From the IMG/VR virus record IMGVR_UViG_3300049491_000435, positions 1 through 20,496 of that record: a DNA stretch of 20,496 nt; one strand, written 5' to 3'. This stretch comes from a virus. Shown here piece after piece: positions 108 to 8,754 of the stretch (its first letter is position 1; each line of letters opens with the position of its first letter). The position numbers and the translations under genes are program-made. The notes beneath the pieces were generated by a model. That model was not told the DNA's origin. It made no database searches and was given only the letters and a program-made list of their open reading frames with translations.

Positions 108-656
108 CTACGTGATGTGTACGCGATGCGCGAACCACCCGAACATGAAGTTCTCGTTTGCTTTCCGCGCTTCGCCGCGCTCCAGATAGTAGGTGCCCTG
201 CTGGGCATTGAGCGCATTGAGCATCACGACCTCGCCAAGGGTTTTGCGCCGAAGAATGAATGCACGAAGTGTCGCCAGCGTCGCGGGGCCAAGGTTGCCA
301 TCGACCTCGATATCGGGGTAATGCGTCCCGCCCTGGTTGAAACTGTTCAACGCGCGTTGAATGAACTTCACGGCCTTGCGCGGAGAGATGTTCACGCCGC
401 ACTCGAACAACTCGTCGGCGACGCGCTCTCCGGCCGCATTGGTCACGTCATCCAGGCGCATCAGGTCCCACCAGCCGCGCCGGTAAATGTCCGTGGCAAC
501 TGACAGCGGCATGTCACGCATCGGTCCGCGGTAGTTGAACGTGCGAGCGGTACTGGACGTGATGCCGAACATCGTCTCTCCGCCGGCATCGTCCGGGTCT
601 TTGGAGTAGCGGCCTTCAATGCCGATGATCTTCAGGAACGAATCTTCGAAACTCAT
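108..656 (-). CDS. Endolysin, GH108-type N-acetylmuramidase with C-terminal peptidoglycan-binding region
   Basis: This 182-residue protein should cleave peptidoglycan in the periplasm at the end of infection. Residues 14-32 carry the signature of glycosyl hydrolase family 108: the expected catalytic Glu14 in EGRYSKDPDDAGGETMFGIT, a Gly-Gly-x-Thr turn, then GIT. The second half, about residues 80-165, fits the companion peptidoglycan-binding domain, with 'FECGVNISPRKAVKFIQRAL' followed by 'VDGNLGPAT'. Length is normal for the family. There is no signal peptide or SAR membrane segment at the N-terminus, so export should depend on a holin. Its ATG at 656-654 overlaps the stop of the holin candidate as ATGA, implying coupled translation. 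Function is confident from the motif; the family name is from memory and not from a search. Confidence 0.9.
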   Translation of the reverse strand: MSFEDSFLKIIGIEGRYSKDPDDAGGETMFGITSSTARTFNYRGPMRDMPLSVATDIYRRGWWDLMRLDDVTNAAGERVADELFECGVNISPRKAVKFIQRALNSFNQGGTHYPDIEVDGNLGPATLATLRAFILRRKTLGEVVMLNALNAQQGTYYLERGEARKANENFMFGWFAHRVHIT

Positions 657-853
657 GACTCGTCACCGGCAGGCGGATCATCCGCATCGCGCACGACGTA
701 CTGCACGGCAGCGGTCACGAGGACCGTCAAGGCGCCCTGGACCTCGATAGGCACATCCAGCGCGACCTGCTTGGCGGCCCACACCGCGATTGTGACAACG
801 GCTCCGGCCATCACGCCGGCGATGACCTTGTTCGTCGGCTTGCTGCTGCTCAT
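653..853 (-). CDS. Holin candidate, two membrane segments
   Basis: A 66-residue protein with two hydrophobic segments, about residues 10-30 and 36-54, joined by a short turn containing Asp-Val-Pro. The N-terminus is short and polar with lysine, and the tail is acidic (RDADDPPAGDES). This size and topology match class II holins. The pattern 'IAGVMAGAVVTIAVWAAKQV' followed by 'DVPIEVQGALTVLV' resembles holins found next to endolysins in many prophages. It would form pores in the inner membrane that let the cytoplasmic endolysin reach the wall. It overlaps the upstream membrane protein (ATGA at 853-850) and the endolysin (ATGA at 656-653), so the three are likely translated together. A role as antiholin to its upstream neighbour is an alternative. 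Confidence 0.75.
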   Translation of the reverse strand: MSSSKPTNKVIAGVMAGAVVTIAVWAAKQVALDVPIEVQGALTVLVTAAVQYVVRDADDPPAGDES

Positions 854-1206
854 GGCTGTCCTTTCGTTGTGCGCCTGACATCTGCCGCTTCGACGGCGCT
901 GATTCGTCGACTCATGTCATCGAGTTTGAACCTGACTTCCGATTCGACCTTGGCGTCGATCACCGCAGCGTGATTCAGTTTGTCGTTGATCGCTTTAACT
1001 TCGGCCCCCATTTCGGCCTGGCGAACGACTTGTTCAGACTGAGTCCTGGACAAGTCGCGCACCCCGAAGAACATGGCGACGGCCTGGGCCGCGCCAAGCC
1101 CGAGAACGCCCAAGATCCAGACAAGCGGAATCTCGCGCGTGATCTTGATCGTCTGTTTCGATGCGTCGATCGAAGAGAAATCCGTATCTCGAATGTGCGG
1201 CTGCAT
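850..1206 (-). CDS. Single-pass membrane protein with coiled-coil tail, lysis cassette (antiholin- or spanin-like candidate)
   Basis: A 118-residue protein. Residues 1-26 are polar, residues 27-48 form one clear membrane helix (IPLVWILGVLGLGAAQAVAM), and residues 52-108 are charged and predicted helical or coiled coil. The start is taken as the ATG at 1206-1204, because a GGAG Shine-Dalgarno core sits eight bases upstream. A GTG in frame at 1215 is too close to that core. It follows the giant ejection protein after a short gap and overlaps the holin candidate as ATGA. A short N-terminus, one membrane helix and a coiled coil is the layout of an inner-membrane spanin or a pinholin or antiholin partner. 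The sequence does not decide between these, and no outer-membrane spanin partner is visible. Confidence 0.65.
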   Translation of the reverse strand: MQPHIRDTDFSSIDASKQTIKITREIPLVWILGVLGLGAAQAVAMFFGVRDLSRTQSEQVVRQAEMGAEVKAINDKLNHAAVIDAKVESEVRFKLDDMSRRISAVEAADVRRTTKGQP

Positions 1207-1222
1207 CGCGATCACTCCACGT

Positions 1223-4200
1223 TTAGAACAAGCCGGCCTGGTTCGGATCGCCCTTCTTGTCGATCTCGTCGACGAGCCCGCGGATCATGTCGGCGATGCG
1301 CTTGGGAGCGCGCGCATCCGCTTCCAGCGAGCGCATCAGGGCCACCACGGGCTCGGAAGCCTCTCCGCCCAGCAGCGAGCCCTGGGACAACGCCTCGTTG
1401 ACCTTCATGCCTTGCTCACGCGCATCGCTATAACGGCGCACCGCCTCGACCAGGTCGGGCGCGAAGTCACGGCCGGCGCGAGTCCCTGCGTCCAGCAAGT
1501 TGCGCAACTTTGCAACCTCAGGCGCCGCACGCAGCATGCCGCCCAAGATGTTGCGCACGTTGGCATCGGTGGATTCGGCCATCAGAGCGACGATGTTCGG
1601 GTCGTCGTAGGCCTTCGAGAAGATCGCATTCCGAATCCGATTGGCGCCGCGCTGCGACAAGCGTCCATCGGCGGTCATCAACTGACCTTGTTCGGCTGGA
1701 CTGACGGCGTAGCGCATGAACTGACGGATGAACTCGGCCGAGCCGCCGGTGTTCATCTGTCCGTCGTCGCTGGTGATGAGGCCTTCCAGGTCCGGCAAGC
1801 GCTGTGCATCGGCGCGCGCCTGCTCGGTATCGCTCATGGCCGAAACCGCCGACTCGTTCGCTTGGCGCGCGAAGTCCGCGCGATCGACATCCACGGTCCG
1901 CTCGCGCACCAAAACCGGCCGGTCCATGGAGCGCACGTCCGCCGCGGTCAAGCCGAAACGCTCGGCGTTCTCCTCAAGGTAGGCGCGATACCGATCAGCC
2001 TTGCCGCCCTGGTACGCGCGGCGCAGGGCGATCGTGCGGGCGTTGCCAGATTCGACGATGCCGTCGGGACCGATGATCGGAGCGCCGTCCGAGGCCTTCG
2101 GCGAATCGGCCAGCAGCTCGGGCTGGATGTCGTTCTGGATGCGCGTGATCTGCGCCTGAGAACTCATGCGCGATCGGTCGCGCGGCTGAATGTCTTGGTT
2201 GAAAGCCGGGTTCGGGTTCAGGTCGTCGTCGTGCGACGTGATCAACAAACCGACATCGGCGAGCCGGTATTGCACCGGCACCCGCAGGCCGCGCTCGGTC
2301 ACGACCGAGGTTTGCGCACCGGTGGCGCCCAGATCAGGCGCACCAGCGGCATGGCTCAGTCCTTCGGCTTGCGCACCGGACTGGCCGACTTCTTCACTTG
2401 CTCGTTCAGGCCGGTGCAGTAGGCCTCGGCCCACTCCTTCGTCCCGAATCGAGGCGCGACTTGATTCGGCGAGGAAGCCGGCACGGATGGCGTCGGTGAT
2501 TTCGCCGCGCTGGTGGGCGTCATTCAGGGCTCCTTCGATCTGCTCACGTAGCAAATTATATTTGACAGCGGGCAGAAGGTCTATGGCCTCCGGTCGGGCG
2601 TTGCCCTTGCCGCGTGAGTTGTCCACGCCCTGGAAGTCGACACGCAGGTCGTTGCGATAGCGCTTCGTCAGCGCACGCATGACTTCGCTGGCGCCGACGT
2701 GTGTCTTGACATGCTCGGCCAGCGGCACCGTTCGGCCGCTGCCTTCCTTGCGAGCCATGTTCATCGCGCGCGACATGGCCTGATAGAAGGCGTCGACCGG
2801 ATCGGCGTAGGTGTACAGGATGCGCACGTCGCGCCCGGCATCGAGCGCCTGTTCGATCTTCTTGATCGACGAATCCAAGCCGTTCATGTTCGTGTCGAAC
2901 ACGATTTCCGGATTGCCGAGCTTTCCGCCTGCGGTTTTCAATCCGGTGCTCTTGCCGGCACCGGTGCCTCCGGCGGTGAACAGGACCGCGCGGTCCTTGC
3001 CTGCTGGCGTCGGCCCGGCCAGCCGGTCGGCGTAGACCTTCTTGATGAACGCGCTGGCCGGCTCATGCACGTCGGCGCTGCGGGTGCGGTCCTTCAGGTA
3101 GTCGGGCGAAAGCTCGCGCGCGGTGTCGGTGTTCAAGACCGTGCCGCCATTCGAGTCAGGCCGCTTGGCGTACTCGGCGACCGCTGCGTCGTAGTCCTTG
3201 CGCAGCTTGGCGCTCAAGCGGTCGGTGATCGGGTTTCCGGTCGGCTCGGTCGCGCGCCGCAGCCCCTCTTCGGCATCGGCAAGGCTCTTGCCTACCGCCC
3301 CGGTCGCTCCCCGCGGCCGCGCGGGTCCTTCGCGTTCGGCTCTGGGCGCTGCATTGCGGTCAGGCCCGGACTGCTTTCCCCCGGAGCCAGTTTCGAGGCG
3401 AGTTGCTTCTGCACGTCGCCCCAAGTCTTCGCTGCCGACAGCACCTTGCTTGCCTTGAGTCTCACGTGCCTTCCCCTCTTCGATGATGCGCCTTACTTCC
3501 CGGTCAAAAGCCCCAGGACTGTTCTCGAACTGCTGCGCGGCGCGCTCGACGGCAGCCGAGTCGTACTCCAGTGCCTGCCATGTGGTTTTCGCGCGTGCAG
3601 CTTCCTGGTCGCCGAGCCGGTGCGCCTTGCGCCAGGCGGTTTCGCCCTCGGCGCGCATGCGCACTGCGTCGACCATTGGATCAAGCGCGAGTTCGCGCAC
3701 TTCCGGCGCCGGGATGGCCTTGCGTTCGGCGCCCAACTTCGCCGCCCGGGCCTCGAACTTCGCCTTGATCTCGGGATCGGTGACGGCATCGGCCAGTTTG
3801 AGGTACTCGGCACCGCGGGCGGCATCGGTGGCGCGCTTGCGTTCCGCGGCGATCTCGGTATCCAGGTCCTTCAGTACCTGCGTGTCGGTCGCCTGCTCGC
3901 GCAACTGCACCAGTTCGCGCTCGCGCTTGGTGGCGCCACGGCGGCCGGCGGGCAACTCTTCGGCCCGGCCGACCGGGATACTGCCGCGCTTTGGCACTTC
4001 CGGTTTCTCGACCGGGATTGAGGCCAACTCGGTCGCCTCGCCGGCCGGAATCTTCTCGGCGCGCAGCTCGTTCGCCCGCGCTTGGAGCGCTTGGCGCAAT
4101 TCTGGCTCTTCGGTGGCCTGCGCAGTCTTCTCCAGGGCTTCAGCCTCGGCCGCGCGCTTGCGCTGTGCCTCGGCGGCCCGGGCGTCGGCTTGGACCTTCT

Positions 4201-6358
4201 TGGCCTGCTGCTCAAGCACGCGCACCGTTTCGGGACTGGCGCCTTCCTTCAGACGGTCTATCTCGGCAAGACGAGTGTCAAGATCTCCGGGGCGCGCGGA
4301 AGCTTCACGTGAAACCGTCGGTGCAGGCTCAGGCACTCGCGGCGCGGGCTGCATTGCCTCGGCCTCAAACGCGCGCACTGTGCCGGGCTCCAGTTTCTGG
4401 TCAGGCCCGAGCGCATAGCGTACCTTCGCCTTGATCTTGCGCTCCTTCAGGTTCTGGATGCCTTTCTTGAGCAGCGTGAAGGCAGGCAGCGGGACCGTTC
4501 CGCCCGAGGCCATGTAGGTCGCCAGCGTGTCGAATCCCTGCACCAAAACCGAGGCGGTGTTCGACGTGTTCACGGATCCAGGCGGTGCGGTATTGATGTC
4601 GGCCACGACATCGCGCAGGTCGCGCATCTGCTCGGCGCCTTTCTTGCCAAACAGGAAGTCAAGTTTCCCGTCCTCGTCAAGTTTGTCGACGACGCGGCCG
4701 AACTTGGCCGACGAAGGAACCTTGTTGCCGCGCTCGTCGCGCGCATCTCCGCCGAACACTTGCTTGCGGATGTGATCGATCGCGGTGCCGCGCATGTCCT
4801 TCCAGGCCTGCGCGCCTTTCTCGCCTGCGCCGATGAGCGTGTCGCGCACGTTCTGCACGTCGGCAAGCGAGCCGCGCAATACCGCGCGATCGAACACGTC
4901 CTCGAACGCGGTGCGCCGGTCGCTGCTGTTCTTCTTGAGTTGGATCAAGTCGCGGATGACGCCCTTTTCCTTGAACTCCTTGGCGTACTCGGCGTACAGC
5001 TTGCGTGCCCCCTTGTAGAGGTCGCCTCCGGCGTTCTCGGTGGCCGCGTCGATGCGCTTGATCAGTTCGCCCGCGTGCACGCTGTTGGGCGTGCCGAATT
5101 CGGTGTTGGCGCGGATCGCCTTGCGCACGTCTTCGAGCGCCTTGATGCTCACCTGACCGGTGGCTTCCGGGTCGTTCTTGAGCAGCTGCTCTTCGGCCAA
5201 CTTGAGAATCGGCGCGAGTTTCTCGCGGGTCGTCTGCGTCTGATCCTCGATGTATGAGCGCACGGCGCTGTAGGGCACCAGTTCCGAGGTTTCGCCAGCC
5301 GCATCGGCCGCCTCGTAGGCAGCTCGGATTTCCTGCTTCGCCTTCTCGGCCTTCTCGACGATCGGGTCGACCACCTTGCGCCCGAGCGCACCGCGGTCAA
5401 TCTCCGTGGCTCCCGTCTGCTCGATGAAGGCTTCGAAATTCTTGGTCACAGCCTCTGTCTTGTCGGCAGCGGCCTCGCGCAGCGGCTTGCCGAGTTCCGG
5501 GTTCTTCGCCGTTTCTTTTTCAAAGCGCTGCTGCTCGAAGGTGCGTTCGGCATCGCCCTTGGTCAACTTGACCGGCACCGGCAGCGAGGCGGCACGCTCA
5601 CGGCGCTGCGTCGCCACTTTGGTGCCAGCCGCGCCGACACTGCCAGCCGGAGGCGCCTCGCTCGGGAGCGCGCGCTCGACGGCCTGCGCAATGGCCTTGA
5701 TGGGCGCCTCCAAGCCGCGCCTGGCCGGCTCTGTGGCGAGCGCAGCAGATTGCCGCATGCCGAGACCGCTCGGCGTTGCCGCGCCGGCGAGCGAGCCATG
5801 CACCCCGATGACGGGAGGCGCGTTCTGCGCAGCCTGGTCGAAGCCCTCTGTCAGGGTGCGGCCGAACTCGGTTTGAGGCTCTGGCCCCGTCGTGATGCCG
5901 GTAGCCTGGTAGATGTCCCGGACCAAGCCAATGCCCTTCTCGGCGCCGACCTGCATGCCGGCCTCGCCCGGGCCGCCGCCGGCCGCGCCGGTCAACCCGA
6001 TCAAGCCGCCGACGGTGCCGCCAGCCACTTTCGCGAAGATGTCGAGCGCACCCTCGACGGCTCCGACCACCTTGTCGCGCACCGGATTCGCGGCGGCGAC
6101 GCGCCGGCGCTGCTCGGCCTGCACCTGAGCAGGCGCTTGCCCTGCCGCCCACTGCGGATCAACGCCTGGGATTTCGACGCGCCTTCCAGGCGGAGCCAAG
6201 CCGCCTTGGTTTCCGCTCACATCCGGCAGCGCGCTTTCGACGGTGGGAGTCGGTGCGTCTGCCTCCCATGCTGCCGGCGCCGCGCTGCGGCCGCGCAGGC
6301 CAGTGGCGGCGCGCGGCTTGTCTTCGACGACAGGATCGGATTCCCAGGGTGCGGACAT
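1223..6358 (-). CDS. Giant ejection/polyvalent protein with permuted zeta-toxin-like kinase and ddrB-type ParB domain
   Basis: A 1711-residue protein, the last of the ejection module. Residues 1-40 are proline/alanine-rich and hold two WE[AS]D motifs (PWESDPVV at 4-11, AWEADAPT at 30-37). Residues 95-130 are small and hydrophobic, resembling a membrane-interacting segment. Residues 260-650 are long charged helices ending in the segment APPGSVNTSNTAS (591-603), typical of phage ejection proteins. Residues 694-779 and 810-891 are two diverged copies of one helical module. Residues about 1050-1290 look like a zeta-toxin-type kinase with Walker A GGTGAGKST (1130-1138, Lys1136). Residues about 1350-1490 match the ParB-like domain of P1 DdrB-type proteins, with 'QPRDR' and 'APIIGPDGIVESGNARTIAL'. 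The C-terminus is helical. Known polyvalent proteins carry such domains and are thought to enter the host with DNA. Delivery here is inferred. The reading frame is intact. Start ATG 6358 has only a weak AAGAAG ribosome site and follows the upstream stop by 3 bases. Confidence 0.85.
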   Translation of the reverse strand: MSAPWESDPVVEDKPRAATGLRGRSAAPAAWEADAPTPTVESALPDVSGNQGGLAPPGRRVEIPGVDPQWAAGQAPAQVQAEQRRRVAAANPVRDKVVGAVEGALDIFAKVAGGTVGGLIGLTGAAGGGPGEAGMQVGAEKGIGLVRDIYQATGITTGPEPQTEFGRTLTEGFDQAAQNAPPVIGVHGSLAGAATPSGLGMRQSAALATEPARRGLEAPIKAIAQAVERALPSEAPPAGSVGAAGTKVATQRRERAASLPVPVKLTKGDAERTFEQQRFEKETAKNPELGKPLREAAADKTEAVTKNFEAFIEQTGATEIDRGALGRKVVDPIVEKAEKAKQEIRAAYEAADAAGETSELVPYSAVRSYIEDQTQTTREKLAPILKLAEEQLLKNDPEATGQVSIKALEDVRKAIRANTEFGTPNSVHAGELIKRIDAATENAGGDLYKGARKLYAEYAKEFKEKGVIRDLIQLKKNSSDRRTAFEDVFDRAVLRGSLADVQNVRDTLIGAGEKGAQAWKDMRGTAIDHIRKQVFGGDARDERGNKVPSSAKFGRVVDKLDEDGKLDFLFGKKGAEQMRDLRDVVADINTAPPGSVNTSNTASVLVQGFDTLATYMASGGTVPLPAFTLLKKGIQNLKERKIKAKVRYALGPDQKLEPGTVRAFEAEAMQPAPRVPEPAPTVSREASARPGDLDTRLAEIDRLKEGASPETVRVLEQQAKKVQADARAAEAQRKRAAEAEALEKTAQATEEPELRQALQARANELRAEKIPAGEATELASIPVEKPEVPKRGSIPVGRAEELPAGRRGATKRERELVQLREQATDTQVLKDLDTEIAAERKRATDAARGAEYLKLADAVTDPEIKAKFEARAAKLGAERKAIPAPEVRELALDPMVDAVRMRAEGETAWRKAHRLGDQEAARAKTTWQALEYDSAAVERAAQQFENSPGAFDREVRRIIEEGKARETQGKQGAVGSEDLGRRAEATRLETGSGGKQSGPDRNAAPRAEREGPARPRGATGAVGKSLADAEEGLRRATEPTGNPITDRLSAKLRKDYDAAVAEYAKRPDSNGGTVLNTDTARELSPDYLKDRTRSADVHEPASAFIKKVYADRLAGPTPAGKDRAVLFTAGGTGAGKSTGLKTAGGKLGNPEIVFDTNMNGLDSSIKKIEQALDAGRDVRILYTYADPVDAFYQAMSRAMNMARKEGSGRTVPLAEHVKTHVGASEVMRALTKRYRNDLRVDFQGVDNSRGKGNARPEAIDLLPAVKYNLLREQIEGALNDAHQRGEITDAIRAGFLAESSRASIRDEGVGRGLLHRPERASEEVGQSGAQAEGLSHAAGAPDLGATGAQTSVVTERGLRVPVQYRLADVGLLITSHDDDLNPNPAFNQDIQPRDRSRMSSQAQITRIQNDIQPELLADSPKASDGAPIIGPDGIVESGNARTIALRRAYQGGKADRYRAYLEENAERFGLTAADVRSMDRPVLVRERTVDVDRADFARQANESAVSAMSDTEQARADAQRLPDLEGLITSDDGQMNTGGSAEFIRQFMRYAVSPAEQGQLMTADGRLSQRGANRIRNAIFSKAYDDPNIVALMAESTDANVRNILGGMLRAAPEVAKLRNLLDAGTRAGRDFAPDLVEAVRRYSDAREQGMKVNEALSQGSLLGGEASEPVVALMRSLEADARAPKRIADMIRGLVDEIDKKGDPNQAGLF

Positions 6359-6361
6359 GGA

Positions 6362-8503
6362 TCACTTCTTGGTGCGAGTGACGCCGTTCGGGTCGATGTA
6401 GGTCGCGCCCGAGGGCAGTTTGTTGTAGGCCGCGGCGGCGGCCTTGGAATCCGCTGGCAAGCGCTGCGGACTGGCAGCGGCCGGCTCGCGCCCAACTTGG
6501 CCGGACTGGCGGCGGTCGGTGTCTGGCAGCGCAGAGACGCCGGGGCCCTTGCTGCCGCCGACCTTGAACTCTCGGTAGCCGTTGTCCGGGCCATAGGTGC
6601 CTTGCAAAGCGTCCATTTCTTCGCGGAACACCCGGACGAAGCCACGCAGTTTCTTGCGCGCCGCATCTGCATCGTCCTTCTCGGTCGGGACGAACGGCGC
6701 GAGCCGCGGGAATTCGGAAACTGTGACAGCCGCGCCGCTGCGGTCGTGAATGACCAGCGAACCGAGGTCGGCAATGGCGGCGCGCGCTTCAACGCCCTTC
6801 GGATCAAGCCGGTTCAGCACTTGGTTCGGGAGGTAGCCCTTCAGGCCGGTCGCCTCTGCGTCGATCGTTTCGCCCTCGCGCGCCGGGCCGCCAGCGCCGA
6901 GCAAGCGCAGCGCGCGTGTTGCGCGCTCTAAGTTGGTGTTGTTCTCCAGCAAGGCTTTCTGAGCTGGCGCTGGCACGTCCTTGAGCTTTCCGCTGGGGCC
7001 GAAATCCGAGGTCGAATCGAAGCGCTTTGCGAGTGCCAGCATCTTCTCGCGGCGGTTGCCCTTCTGGCTGATTTCGCTTGGCTTGATCGACCCGTTCGCG
7101 AGTCCCTCGACGACGATCGCATCGTCTTCCGACAGGGAGTCGAGCAGCGCTTGCCCGGTGGCCCCCTTCGGAGGCGCCGGGCCCGTGAGCCCACCGCCGC
7201 CAGAGCCACCGCCCGTGCCGCGGCCAACCTTGCCGCCCTTGGGCGCGCGCAGTAGGCCCTGCTGCTGAAGCGAGATCGCCGCCTCCGCTTCGCTGACGCC
7301 TTGCTCTTCGGCGTAATCCTGAACCGCCTGGATGTTTGCGGCCAAGCCCGTCGCACGCGGCTTCTCGCGCGGCGCGCCCTCAATGACTTCGCCCGTCGGC
7401 TTGCCGCTGGACGTGTCGATGCCGACCAGCCGCTGGCCCGGGCTCACGGCCTTGTACTCGACCGGAGCCTTTGCCGGCATGCGGCCTCGAACCGAGTAGA
7501 AGGCCTTCAGGAAGTCGTCACTTGATGCGCCCGCTTCCTTGCGGCCCTGATCCATCTTGGCGGCAAGCGCCGGGTTTCCGATCGCCGTCGAAAGAGTCTG
7601 CATCTGCGCGGCGTAGTCCATCGCCTTTTGCATGTCGATCGCTCGCGGGGGGTCGTTCGGATCGCTGGATCGGTTCTCGGTGACCGGCGCGATGTAGTAG
7701 CCGGTCGCACCAAGTGGCGCGCCTTCCTCGGCCGACATCTCGGCCCCATCCGTCTTCGCCGCGCCGCTGCGCACGTACACCTTGACCACGGGCAGCACCT
7801 TGTTCGGGTCCGATGGGTGCGGAATCAGCTTGACGATCTGCTTGCCGACGATGATGCCGCCGTGCGGGCTGGTCTCGCCGAGGCCGATCTTCAACTCGGG
7901 TTCCAGCAGCACGTTCGCGCCGCGCAGCACCGCGCCCTCGTTCTTGAACTCCAGGCCGTCCATGATGTCTGCGACCGCAGCCGAGACCTTCGAAGGCTTC
8001 CCGTCGCGCCCGATCAAGTCCGCCGGATCGCGACGCGCTTGAACCGCGACCATCTGATACAGGTCGCCCGGCGACATCTCGTCGATCGATAGCCGCCCGC
8101 TCTGAAGTTGCATCGCGCTGTCTTTCGCGCGCTGCTCCATTTGCCGCACGACTGGATCGTAGCGTTTCCGCAACAAAGTGTTGCGCGATGAAGACACTTG
8201 ATCGGCCCGCGTCTTGTACGTGCCGGCGATGTCCTGGGGGATGTTCTTCATCCCGCCGTACTGCTGGAGGTAGCCCTCGCCCTCGGAGCGCAGGTCGTCG
8301 AACTCCTTGTTGATCGCGTCGAGCGCGCGGTCTTCTTCAAGGCGCTTGTCGGCCTCGCGCTGGCGCTGTAGTTGCGCGTCGGCGAGCAGCACCTGGCGCT
8401 TGTCATTCTGCTCGGCCAATTCCTGCTGGCGCAGTCGCATGCCCAGGCCGATGCCGGATTCAAGACCCGATGCGGCCGCGCCGCCTACGCTCAAGCCGGC
8501 CAT
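6362..8503 (-). CDS. Large DNA-ejection (internal virion) protein
   Basis: A 713-residue protein. It begins with a small glycine/alanine-rich segment (1-22), then charged helix or coiled coil (23-130) and a folded region around 190-290. A glycine/serine linker lies near 424-440, and a conserved-looking C-terminal part follows. The segment LDPKGVEARAAIADLGSLVI (566-585) and the next residues, through AAVTVSEFPRLAPFVP, are the kind of motif shared by internal proteins of podovirus-like prophages. So is the C-terminal LPSGATYIDPNGVTR (696-710). Such proteins leave the head and help DNA cross the cell envelope. The ATG at 8503 overlaps the upstream stop as TGATG, and a TTG one codon earlier is rejected. 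The next gene, the giant polyvalent protein, starts after a 3-base gap, and the two are probably ejected together. The ejection role comes from family resemblance and order; no catalytic motif is visible. Confidence 0.7.
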   Translation of the reverse strand: MAGLSVGGAAASGLESGIGLGMRLRQQELAEQNDKRQVLLADAQLQRQREADKRLEEDRALDAINKEFDDLRSEGEGYLQQYGGMKNIPQDIAGTYKTRADQVSSSRNTLLRKRYDPVVRQMEQRAKDSAMQLQSGRLSIDEMSPGDLYQMVAVQARRDPADLIGRDGKPSKVSAAVADIMDGLEFKNEGAVLRGANVLLEPELKIGLGETSPHGGIIVGKQIVKLIPHPSDPNKVLPVVKVYVRSGAAKTDGAEMSAEEGAPLGATGYYIAPVTENRSSDPNDPPRAIDMQKAMDYAAQMQTLSTAIGNPALAAKMDQGRKEAGASSDDFLKAFYSVRGRMPAKAPVEYKAVSPGQRLVGIDTSSGKPTGEVIEGAPREKPRATGLAANIQAVQDYAEEQGVSEAEAAISLQQQGLLRAPKGGKVGRGTGGGSGGGGLTGPAPPKGATGQALLDSLSEDDAIVVEGLANGSIKPSEISQKGNRREKMLALAKRFDSTSDFGPSGKLKDVPAPAQKALLENNTNLERATRALRLLGAGGPAREGETIDAEATGLKGYLPNQVLNRLDPKGVEARAAIADLGSLVIHDRSGAAVTVSEFPRLAPFVPTEKDDADAARKKLRGFVRVFREEMDALQGTYGPDNGYREFKVGGSKGPGVSALPDTDRRQSGQVGREPAAASPQRLPADSKAAAAAYNKLPSGATYIDPNGVTRTKK

Positions 8504-8754
8504 CAAAAAAGCCCCCCGCCAATCGCCCCGATGACGCCGCCGACAAGCGCGCCCACAGGGCCGAATGTCGATCCGTACATCGCCCCGGCGCTTGCCCCGA
8601 GCTGCACATTGCCGGCCTTTCGGGACTTCTCCATCTGCCGGTTTCCAAGCACGCGCTGCTGCTCTTGCTCGGCGGCTTGGCCGAGCATCTGCGAGGCCTG
8701 CTCCTGCTCTTGCAGGCCGGCTGCCGCCAGTCCGCCGCCTACGGTTCGTGCCAT
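8503..8754 (-). CDS. Small glycine-zipper protein of the ejection module
   Basis: An 83-residue protein with two parts. Residues 1-48 are glutamine- and glutamate-rich and probably helical. Residues 53-83 form a glycine-zipper hydrophobic hairpin (GASAGAMYGSTFGPVGALVG, then GVIGAIGGGLF). Gly-zipper segments of this kind insert in or associate with membranes in many small proteins. The ATG at 8754-8752 has a GGAG core eight bases upstream; a longer frame reaching into the previous gene is rejected. The stop overlaps the start of the 713-residue ejection protein as TGATG. The position suggests an internal virion protein that could help form the trans-envelope channel during ejection. That role is inference. 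Confidence 0.7.
   Translation of the reverse strand: MARTVGGGLAAAGLQEQEQASQMLGQAAEQEQQRVLGNRQMEKSRKAGNVQLGASAGAMYGSTFGPVGALVGGVIGAIGGGLF

What the first reader, a model, noticed from the sequence alone, without database searches (positions are those of the whole stretch)
2489..3211. Zeta-toxin-like kinase that looks circularly permuted, inside an ejection protein
Residues 1074-1103 of the giant protein (bases 3050-3139) hold 'NTDTARELSPDY' followed by a His-x-Pro-Ala-Ser block. They resemble the zeta-toxin segment that in canonical zeta follows the P-loop and binds the sugar nucleotide. Here this segment precedes the Walker A motif GGTGAGKST (residues 1130-1138) by about 50 residues. Only 12 residues separate the P-loop from the next strand, 'EIVFDTNMNG'. 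The later arginines (R1197, and R1209 in 'GRTVP') remain. This reads as a rewired zeta fold carried on a virion protein. If active it would phosphorylate a nucleotide sugar or other host target early in infection. Zeta-type domains in phage polyvalent proteins are known; the permutation and the fusion to the ejection domain are what I would check.
Basis: partly seen in the sequence, partly recalled or inferred. Interest (0 to 1): 0.78.

Follow-up and report, generated by a model that had tools for sequence, protein, structure and literature searches.

The report
Rewired zeta kinase on phage protein
A large phage protein, probably pushed into the bacterium with the viral DNA, carries a small-molecule kinase domain of the zeta-toxin type whose parts occur in an unusual order; that order was already known from one crystallised gonococcal toxin, but here it belongs to a large, mostly unnamed phage family with a changed substrate site.

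Summary
Residues ~1046-1295 of a 1711-aa minus-strand protein form a zeta-type P-loop kinase in which the substrate segment comes before the Walker A motif. This is a two-block swap (order 2-1-3), not a circular permutation. AlphaFold2 gives pLDDT 93; the best PDB matches are 6EPG/6EPH/6EPI, Neisseria gonorrhoeae zeta-1 (TM 0.75-0.78). Rocker et al. 2018 described the same "topological rewiring" there, so the topology is not new.

New here: (i) a large phage family of this domain (189 viral contigs in one capped scan), mostly solo ~300-aa genes; (ii) catalytic Asp, Walker Lys and both Arg invariant in 42/42 proteins aligned, while the two residues credited with UDP-MurNAc preference in zeta-1 (K59, N75) are Arg and Ser/Ala in nearly all phage-type copies; (iii) a rare chimera: a putative ejection protein, normally a ~600-650 aa free-standing protein (0 of 80 closest relatives carry cargo), extended by the kinase plus a phage-P1 DdrB module.

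Best explanation: an active nucleotide-sugar-type kinase delivered with phage DNA as cargo of a polyvalent virion protein. Fold and catalytic residues are supported by computation; substrate, delivery and effect are inferred.

The parts
1223..6358 (-). 1711-aa polyvalent protein (P0001)
4439..5692 (-). residues 223-640: all-helical putative ejection-protein domain, normally a free-standing ~600-650 aa protein
   Evidence: homologous to Pseudomonas phage AH02 gp13 and ctnlZ23 UOF80810; 413 relatives in viral contigs, closest 80 free-standing; AlphaFold2 pLDDT 84, no known fold matched
3224..4438 (-). residues 641-1045: charged, low-conservation linker
   Evidence: 43% / 27% identity to the two syntenic relatives, against 62-66% in the kinase domain
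2474..3223 (-). residues ~1046-1295: topologically rewired zeta-type kinase domain
3014..3151 (-). block 2 (residues 1070-1115): substrate segment GGTVLNTDTARELSPDY...HEPAS, placed before the P-loop; matches Zeta_toxin profile 40-90 in relatives
3125..3127 (-). D1078, equivalent of catalytic D56 of gonococcal zeta-1; 42/42 invariant
   Evidence: PMC5923241
2945..2971 (-). block 1: Walker A GGTGAGKST, residues 1130-1138 (K1136 = K115 of zeta-1)
2879..2908 (-). start of block 3: strand EIVFDTNMNG (residues 1151-1160; D1155 = E133 of zeta-1)
2768..2770 (-). R1197, equivalent of R175 of zeta-1; 42/42 invariant
2732..2734 (-). R1209, equivalent of R181 of zeta-1; 42/42 invariant
2615..2623 (-). D1246-N1247-S1248: motif typical of the phage-type clade, absent from zeta-1-like plasmid copies
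1250..2338 (-). residues 1341-1703: DdrB N-terminal module (Pfam ddrB-ParB at 1357-1487), homologous to phage P1 DdrB
6362..8506 (-). upstream neighbour, 714 aa, probable virion protein; its homologue lies just upstream in both syntenic relatives
108..1215 (-). downstream genes: small protein of unknown function (850-1215), holin (653-853), endolysin (108-656)

Best explanation
The segment is an active, topologically rewired zeta-type P-loop kinase of the same topology as gonococcal zeta-1, carried as cargo in a phage polyvalent virion protein. The N-terminal ejection-type domain and the C-terminal DdrB module are the loading and delivery parts: the protein is made late, packaged, and enters the next host with the DNA. 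Inside, the kinase phosphorylates a small nucleotide-linked metabolite, D1078 acting as base, K1136 holding ATP and R1197/R1209 neutralising phosphates. The substrate is most likely a UDP-activated sugar, which would briefly drain envelope precursors. Steps supported by computation: domain, block order, fold, catalytic residues, strong conservation, fusion partners, late gene position. Inferred: packaging, injection, catalysis, substrate, benefit to the phage.
For: Collinear match to zeta-1 by sequence and fold (TM 0.75-0.78, rmsd 3.4-3.8; canonical zeta structures only 0.41-0.47 and rmsd near 10, as expected if blocks are swapped). Model pLDDT 93.3, pTM 0.89. D1078, K1136, R1197, R1209 invariant in 42/42 proteins from phages, plasmids and bacteria. 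The kinase and DdrB domains are the most conserved parts between the window and two syntenic Burkholderiales loci (66/64% and 62/65%, against 22-48% elsewhere). The kinase recurs in polyvalent proteins with DdrB in both orders, DarB-like Eco57I+SNF2, ART-PolyVal, InPase+LPD38. P1 DdrB is in the virion and Dar proteins are co-ejected (PMC9024508, PMC12810830). Zeta kinases were predicted in phage MuF-fused and conjugative polyvalent proteins (PMC5512222).
Against: No experiment. K59 and N75 of zeta-1, credited with UDP-MurNAc preference, are R1081 and S1094 here, so the substrate may differ. No virion proteomics for this phage. The ejection-type domain matches no solved structure. Most family members are solo genes beside replication/terminase genes, so the kinase is not tied to the virion in general.
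Confidence: 0.55

Rival explanations
1. Same kinase, but its substrate is not a UDP-sugar: it phosphorylates NAD or another nucleotide metabolite, as the zeta-fold AvrRxo1 does with NAD, perhaps to counter NAD-based or nucleotide-signal phage defences.
For: Uniform change at both UDP-MurNAc-selecting positions (K59 to R, N75 to S/A) and phage-type D1155-N1157 and D1246-N1247 in place of E-Q and R-D in zeta-1-like plasmid copies. AvrRxo1 is among the next-best folds and is a NAD kinase (PMC5087710, PMC5491322).
Against: AvrRxo1 has lower fold similarity (TM 0.44-0.49); the two phosphate-binding arginines and catalytic Asp of the sugar-nucleotide kinases are all kept; no NAD-specific feature was tested.
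Confidence: 0.2
2. The kinase works late in the producing cell: made just upstream of holin and endolysin, it stops peptidoglycan synthesis and helps lysis, or its toxicity is simply harmless then.
For: The gene lies directly upstream of a small gene, the holin and the endolysin on the same strand; gonococcal zeta-1 expression lyses E. coli (PMC5923241).
Against: Fusion to an ejection-type protein and a DdrB module has no obvious use for lysis; relatives are fused to quite different virion or anti-restriction domains.
Confidence: 0.13
3. The domain is a catalytically dead remnant used as a structural spacer in the virion protein.
For: No activity data exist.
Against: All catalytic residues invariant in 42/42 and the domain is better conserved than flanking linkers.
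Confidence: 0.04
4. Chance resemblance of an unrelated P-loop ATPase.
For: Walker A motifs are common.
Against: Pfam, PDB sequence search, AlphaFold2 model and fold search all agree on zeta.
Confidence: 0.01

Closest known systems
Neisseria gonorrhoeae zeta-1 toxin (PDB 6EPG, 6EPH, 6EPI; Rocker et al. 2018, PMC5923241)
   Same: Same block order (substrate segment, then P-loop, then rest), same kinase fold, equivalents of D56, K115, R175, R181 conserved, collinear over the whole domain.
   Different: ~17% structural identity; K59 and N75 equivalents are R and S; no OB-fold domain after it; no epsilon-1-like antitoxin gene recognised; embedded in a 1711-aa phage protein.
Canonical zeta / PezT (PDB 1GVN, 3Q8X, 2P5T)
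   Same: Kinase fold, catalytic Asp and P-loop, Pfam Zeta_toxin homology in three separate blocks.
   Different: In canonical zeta the P-loop block comes first; here it is second. Sequential fold alignment drops to TM 0.41-0.47.
Phage and plasmid polyvalent proteins with zeta kinases (Iyer et al. 2017, PMC5512222)
   Same: Long late-gene phage protein with several effector domains; zeta kinase and DdrB-like ParB both named there.
   Different: The passage found there describes zeta fused to MuF and in conjugative elements; the searched text did not mention block-swapped zeta or fusion to a P22-like ejection-type protein.
Phage P1 DdrB
   Same: C-terminal ~360 aa homologous to the N-terminal part of DdrB at 35% identity.
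   Different: P1 DdrB is a separate protein without kinase or ejection-type domain.
Pseudomonas phage AH02 gp13 (next to a P22-like injection translocase)
   Same: Homologous to residues 223-632 (32% identity).
   Different: Ends at 658 aa, without cargo domains.

Membership tests
Topologically rewired zeta kinases (gonococcal zeta-1 class) | Substrate block precedes the P-loop block, nucleotide-kinase fold | tested here: met
Topologically rewired zeta kinases (gonococcal zeta-1 class) | Catalytic Asp (D56), Walker Lys (K115), R175 and R181 | tested here: met
   D1078, K1136, R1197, R1209; 42/42
Topologically rewired zeta kinases (gonococcal zeta-1 class) | UDP-MurNAc-contacting K59 and N75 | tested here: not met
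   R1081 and S1094; R and S/A in nearly all phage-type relatives, K and N in the two plasmid copies. So not filed as a UDP-MurNAc 4-kinase.
Topologically rewired zeta kinases (gonococcal zeta-1 class) | C-terminal OB-fold domain (gonococcal toxins and Eikenella only, per PMC5923241) | tested here: not met
   Followed by a linker and the DdrB module; not a feature of the whole class
Topologically rewired zeta kinases (gonococcal zeta-1 class) | Bicistronic toxin-antitoxin operon | tested here: not met
   Embedded in one 1711-aa ORF among phage genes; no antitoxin gene recognised by eye in the window or beside solo relatives. An unknown antitoxin cannot be excluded.
Topologically rewired zeta kinases (gonococcal zeta-1 class) | Phosphorylates UDP-sugars at the 4'-OH | not testable with these tools
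   needs biochemistry
Canonical zeta / PezT toxins | P-loop block N-terminal to the substrate block | tested here: not met
   order 2-1-3
Polyvalent proteins (Iyer et al. 2017) | Several effector domains in one long polypeptide of a phage or conjugative element, in late/virion gene context | tested here: met
   zeta + DdrB-ParB + ejection-type domain; major capsid, structural, holin and endolysin genes in the window
Polyvalent proteins (Iyer et al. 2017) | Packaged in the virion and delivered | not testable with these tools
   needs virion proteomics
Phage ejection proteins (P22 gp16/gp20-like) | Homology to a protein known to be ejected | tested here: inconclusive
   Homologue AH02 gp13 sits beside a protein of the 'released from the phage upon host infection' PHROG; 6 of 80 relatives have that neighbour; gp13 itself has no PHROG and the fold is unmatched

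The most novel reading that the evidence does not exclude
The phage clade of rewired zeta kinases has a different substrate from zeta-1 and is an effector loaded as cargo onto a normally cargo-free ejection protein, so that a small-molecule kinase acts in the host in the first minutes of infection.
Probability: 0.3. Interest if true: 0.75.

Novelty: new variant of a known kind. Interest (0 to 1): 0.5.

Why it matters
It shows that the block-swapped zeta kinase, known mainly from a gonococcal toxin-antitoxin pair and its proteobacterial relatives, is a large phage family, found both as solo genes and as cargo on virion-type proteins. Injected kinases acting on small molecules are little known in phages; this family gives clear test proteins and a clear question (which substrate, given the uniform change at the two selectivity residues). 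The ejection-protein chimera may show how phages load enzymes onto their DNA-delivery machinery.

Tried and rejected
Single-sequence scans of viral contigs found nothing; a four-sequence alignment was needed. Megablast of the whole gene against phage records: no match. NCBIfam: no match for the giant protein. A pattern search in the own record matched nothing and was uninformative. The window's own segment before the P-loop is too diverged to hit Pfam alone. Fold search of the ejection-type domain against the PDB: no match at E <= 0.001. Literature searches for an ejection protein with zeta toxin: none; for 'circular permutation' with zeta toxin: two unrelated papers. Circular permutation rejected: the C-terminal block stays in place and two internal blocks change order. 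No antitoxin recognised beside solo relatives. Zeta_toxin hits elsewhere in host genomes were mostly P-loop regions only and were not used as canonical controls.

Full report
What is there. The window is a 20.5-kb virus record. Minus-strand genes include a major capsid protein, structural proteins, a 714-aa protein, the 1711-aa protein of the finding (1223-6358), a small protein, a holin and an endolysin.

Domains of the 1711-aa protein. Pfam finds ddrB-ParB (1357-1487, E 1.8e-37) and Zeta_toxin (1151-1235, profile 97-178, E 2.4e-8). Residues 1341-1703 match the N-terminal part of phage P1 DdrB. Residues 160-632 match free-standing proteins of phages ctnlZ23 and AH02; the AH02 one lies beside a P22-like injection translocase whose PHROG is 'released from the phage upon host infection'.

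Block order. The part after the P-loop matches Zeta_toxin profile positions of about 90-188 in relatives. The part before the P-loop, cut out alone, matches Zeta_toxin in 12 of 24 relatives, best E 0.0024, no other family in more than two, at profile 40-90 where printed, and the P-loop at 8-28. So blocks 1 and 2 have changed places and block 3 stays: a swap, not a circular permutation. The individual E-values are weak; the consistency across relatives and the structure carry the argument.

The known precedent. The best solved relative is the N. gonorrhoeae zeta-1 toxin, collinear over the whole domain (E 2e-5 single sequence; E 7e-49 profile). [quoted passage not shown] The topology is therefore known since 2018.

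Structure. AlphaFold2 with 24 sequences: pLDDT 93.3, pTM 0.89. Foldseek's first six PDB hits are zeta-1 chains (TM 0.75-0.78); canonical zeta, PezT and AvrRxo1 follow at 0.41-0.49 with large rmsd, as a sequential aligner must give for swapped blocks. Among viral models the best are uncultured Caudovirales proteins (TM 0.83-0.88) and a cedratvirus protein (TM 0.80).

Active site. By alignment D1078 = D56 (base), R1081 = K59, S1094 = N75, K1136 = K115, D1155 = E133, R1197 = R175, R1209 = R181. D1078, K1136, R1197 and R1209 are invariant in 42 of 42 proteins. K59 and N75, which the paper credits with preference for UDP-MurNAc, are K and N in the two plasmid copies but R and S or A in nearly all other rows. 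I infer an active kinase with possibly altered substrate choice.

The family. One viral scan gave 189 relatives, 80 kept. Most of these are solo ORFs of about 280-380 aa; in the one neighbourhood checked by PHROGs (L032) the gene lies between a primosomal/replication gene and the terminase genes and has no PHROG. Others are fused: ~740-920-aa proteins among virion genes (L036, L048, L065, L066, L076), a 3123-aa protein with glucosaminidase, InPase and LPD38 (L008), and in bacterial assemblies DdrB-ParB before or after it, ART-PolyVal, or Eco57I+SNF2. In the tree the window sits with L086 (Rubrivivax MAG) and L087 (Burkholderiales MAG) with support 99/93.

The chimera. Those two loci share the gene order upstream. 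Kinase and DdrB parts are the best conserved (62-66%), the ejection-type part 42-48%, linkers less. Among the 80 closest viral relatives of the ejection-type domain (413 found), none carries kinase or DdrB, and the median complete ORF is about 640 aa. The cargo is thus an addition to a normally bare protein; the sample is of closest relatives only. The domain is helical with no PDB match, so 'ejection protein' is inferred from position and neighbours.

How it likely works. [quoted passage not shown]). Iyer et al. proposed that zeta kinases in polyvalent proteins weaken the cell wall at DNA entry (PMC5512222). The simplest reading is delivery of a nucleotide-sugar kinase at infection. Rivals: another substrate such as NAD, as AvrRxo1 uses, or late action beside the lysis genes. 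None was tested experimentally.

Novelty. Known: zeta fold, block swap, zeta in polyvalent proteins, DdrB. I found no report of: the phage clade of swapped kinases with its own selectivity residues, or the ejection-type/kinase/DdrB chimera; the literature search covered open-licence papers only.

Noticed in passing
L093:7884-8738 (+) and L094:100-1089 (+): Bacterial relatives of the kinase begin with what looks like a Sec signal peptide (L093) or lipobox (L094), which is odd for an ATP-dependent kinase; L093 has also lost the R1081 and H1098 equivalents.
   Followed up: no
BFVD A0A2R8FDL0 (Brazilian cedratvirus): A giant-virus protein matches the model with TM 0.80/0.75, suggesting a block-swapped zeta kinase in a eukaryotic virus.
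   Followed up: no
window:6317-6358 (-) and window:19126-20298 (-): Both proteins contain a PWE-x-DP motif (APWESDPVV at the N-terminus of the giant protein, KPWEADPIV in the other); L086 has GPWEQF near its likely start. Possibly a packaging or processing signal.
   Followed up: no
L032:7860-8810 (+) and many similar loci: Solo phage kinase genes of ~300 aa between replication and terminase genes, with no PHROG family.
   Followed up: partly
L098-L102: Five Acidobacteriota assemblies carry a separate clade of solo copies with Q in place of H1098 and no antitoxin recognised.
   Followed up: partly
L091:1410-13580 (+): A protein of at least 4057 aa with DdrB-ParB, swapped zeta kinase, Eco57I-type methylase and SNF2 domains: a DarB-like anti-restriction protein with the kinase in it.
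   Followed up: partly
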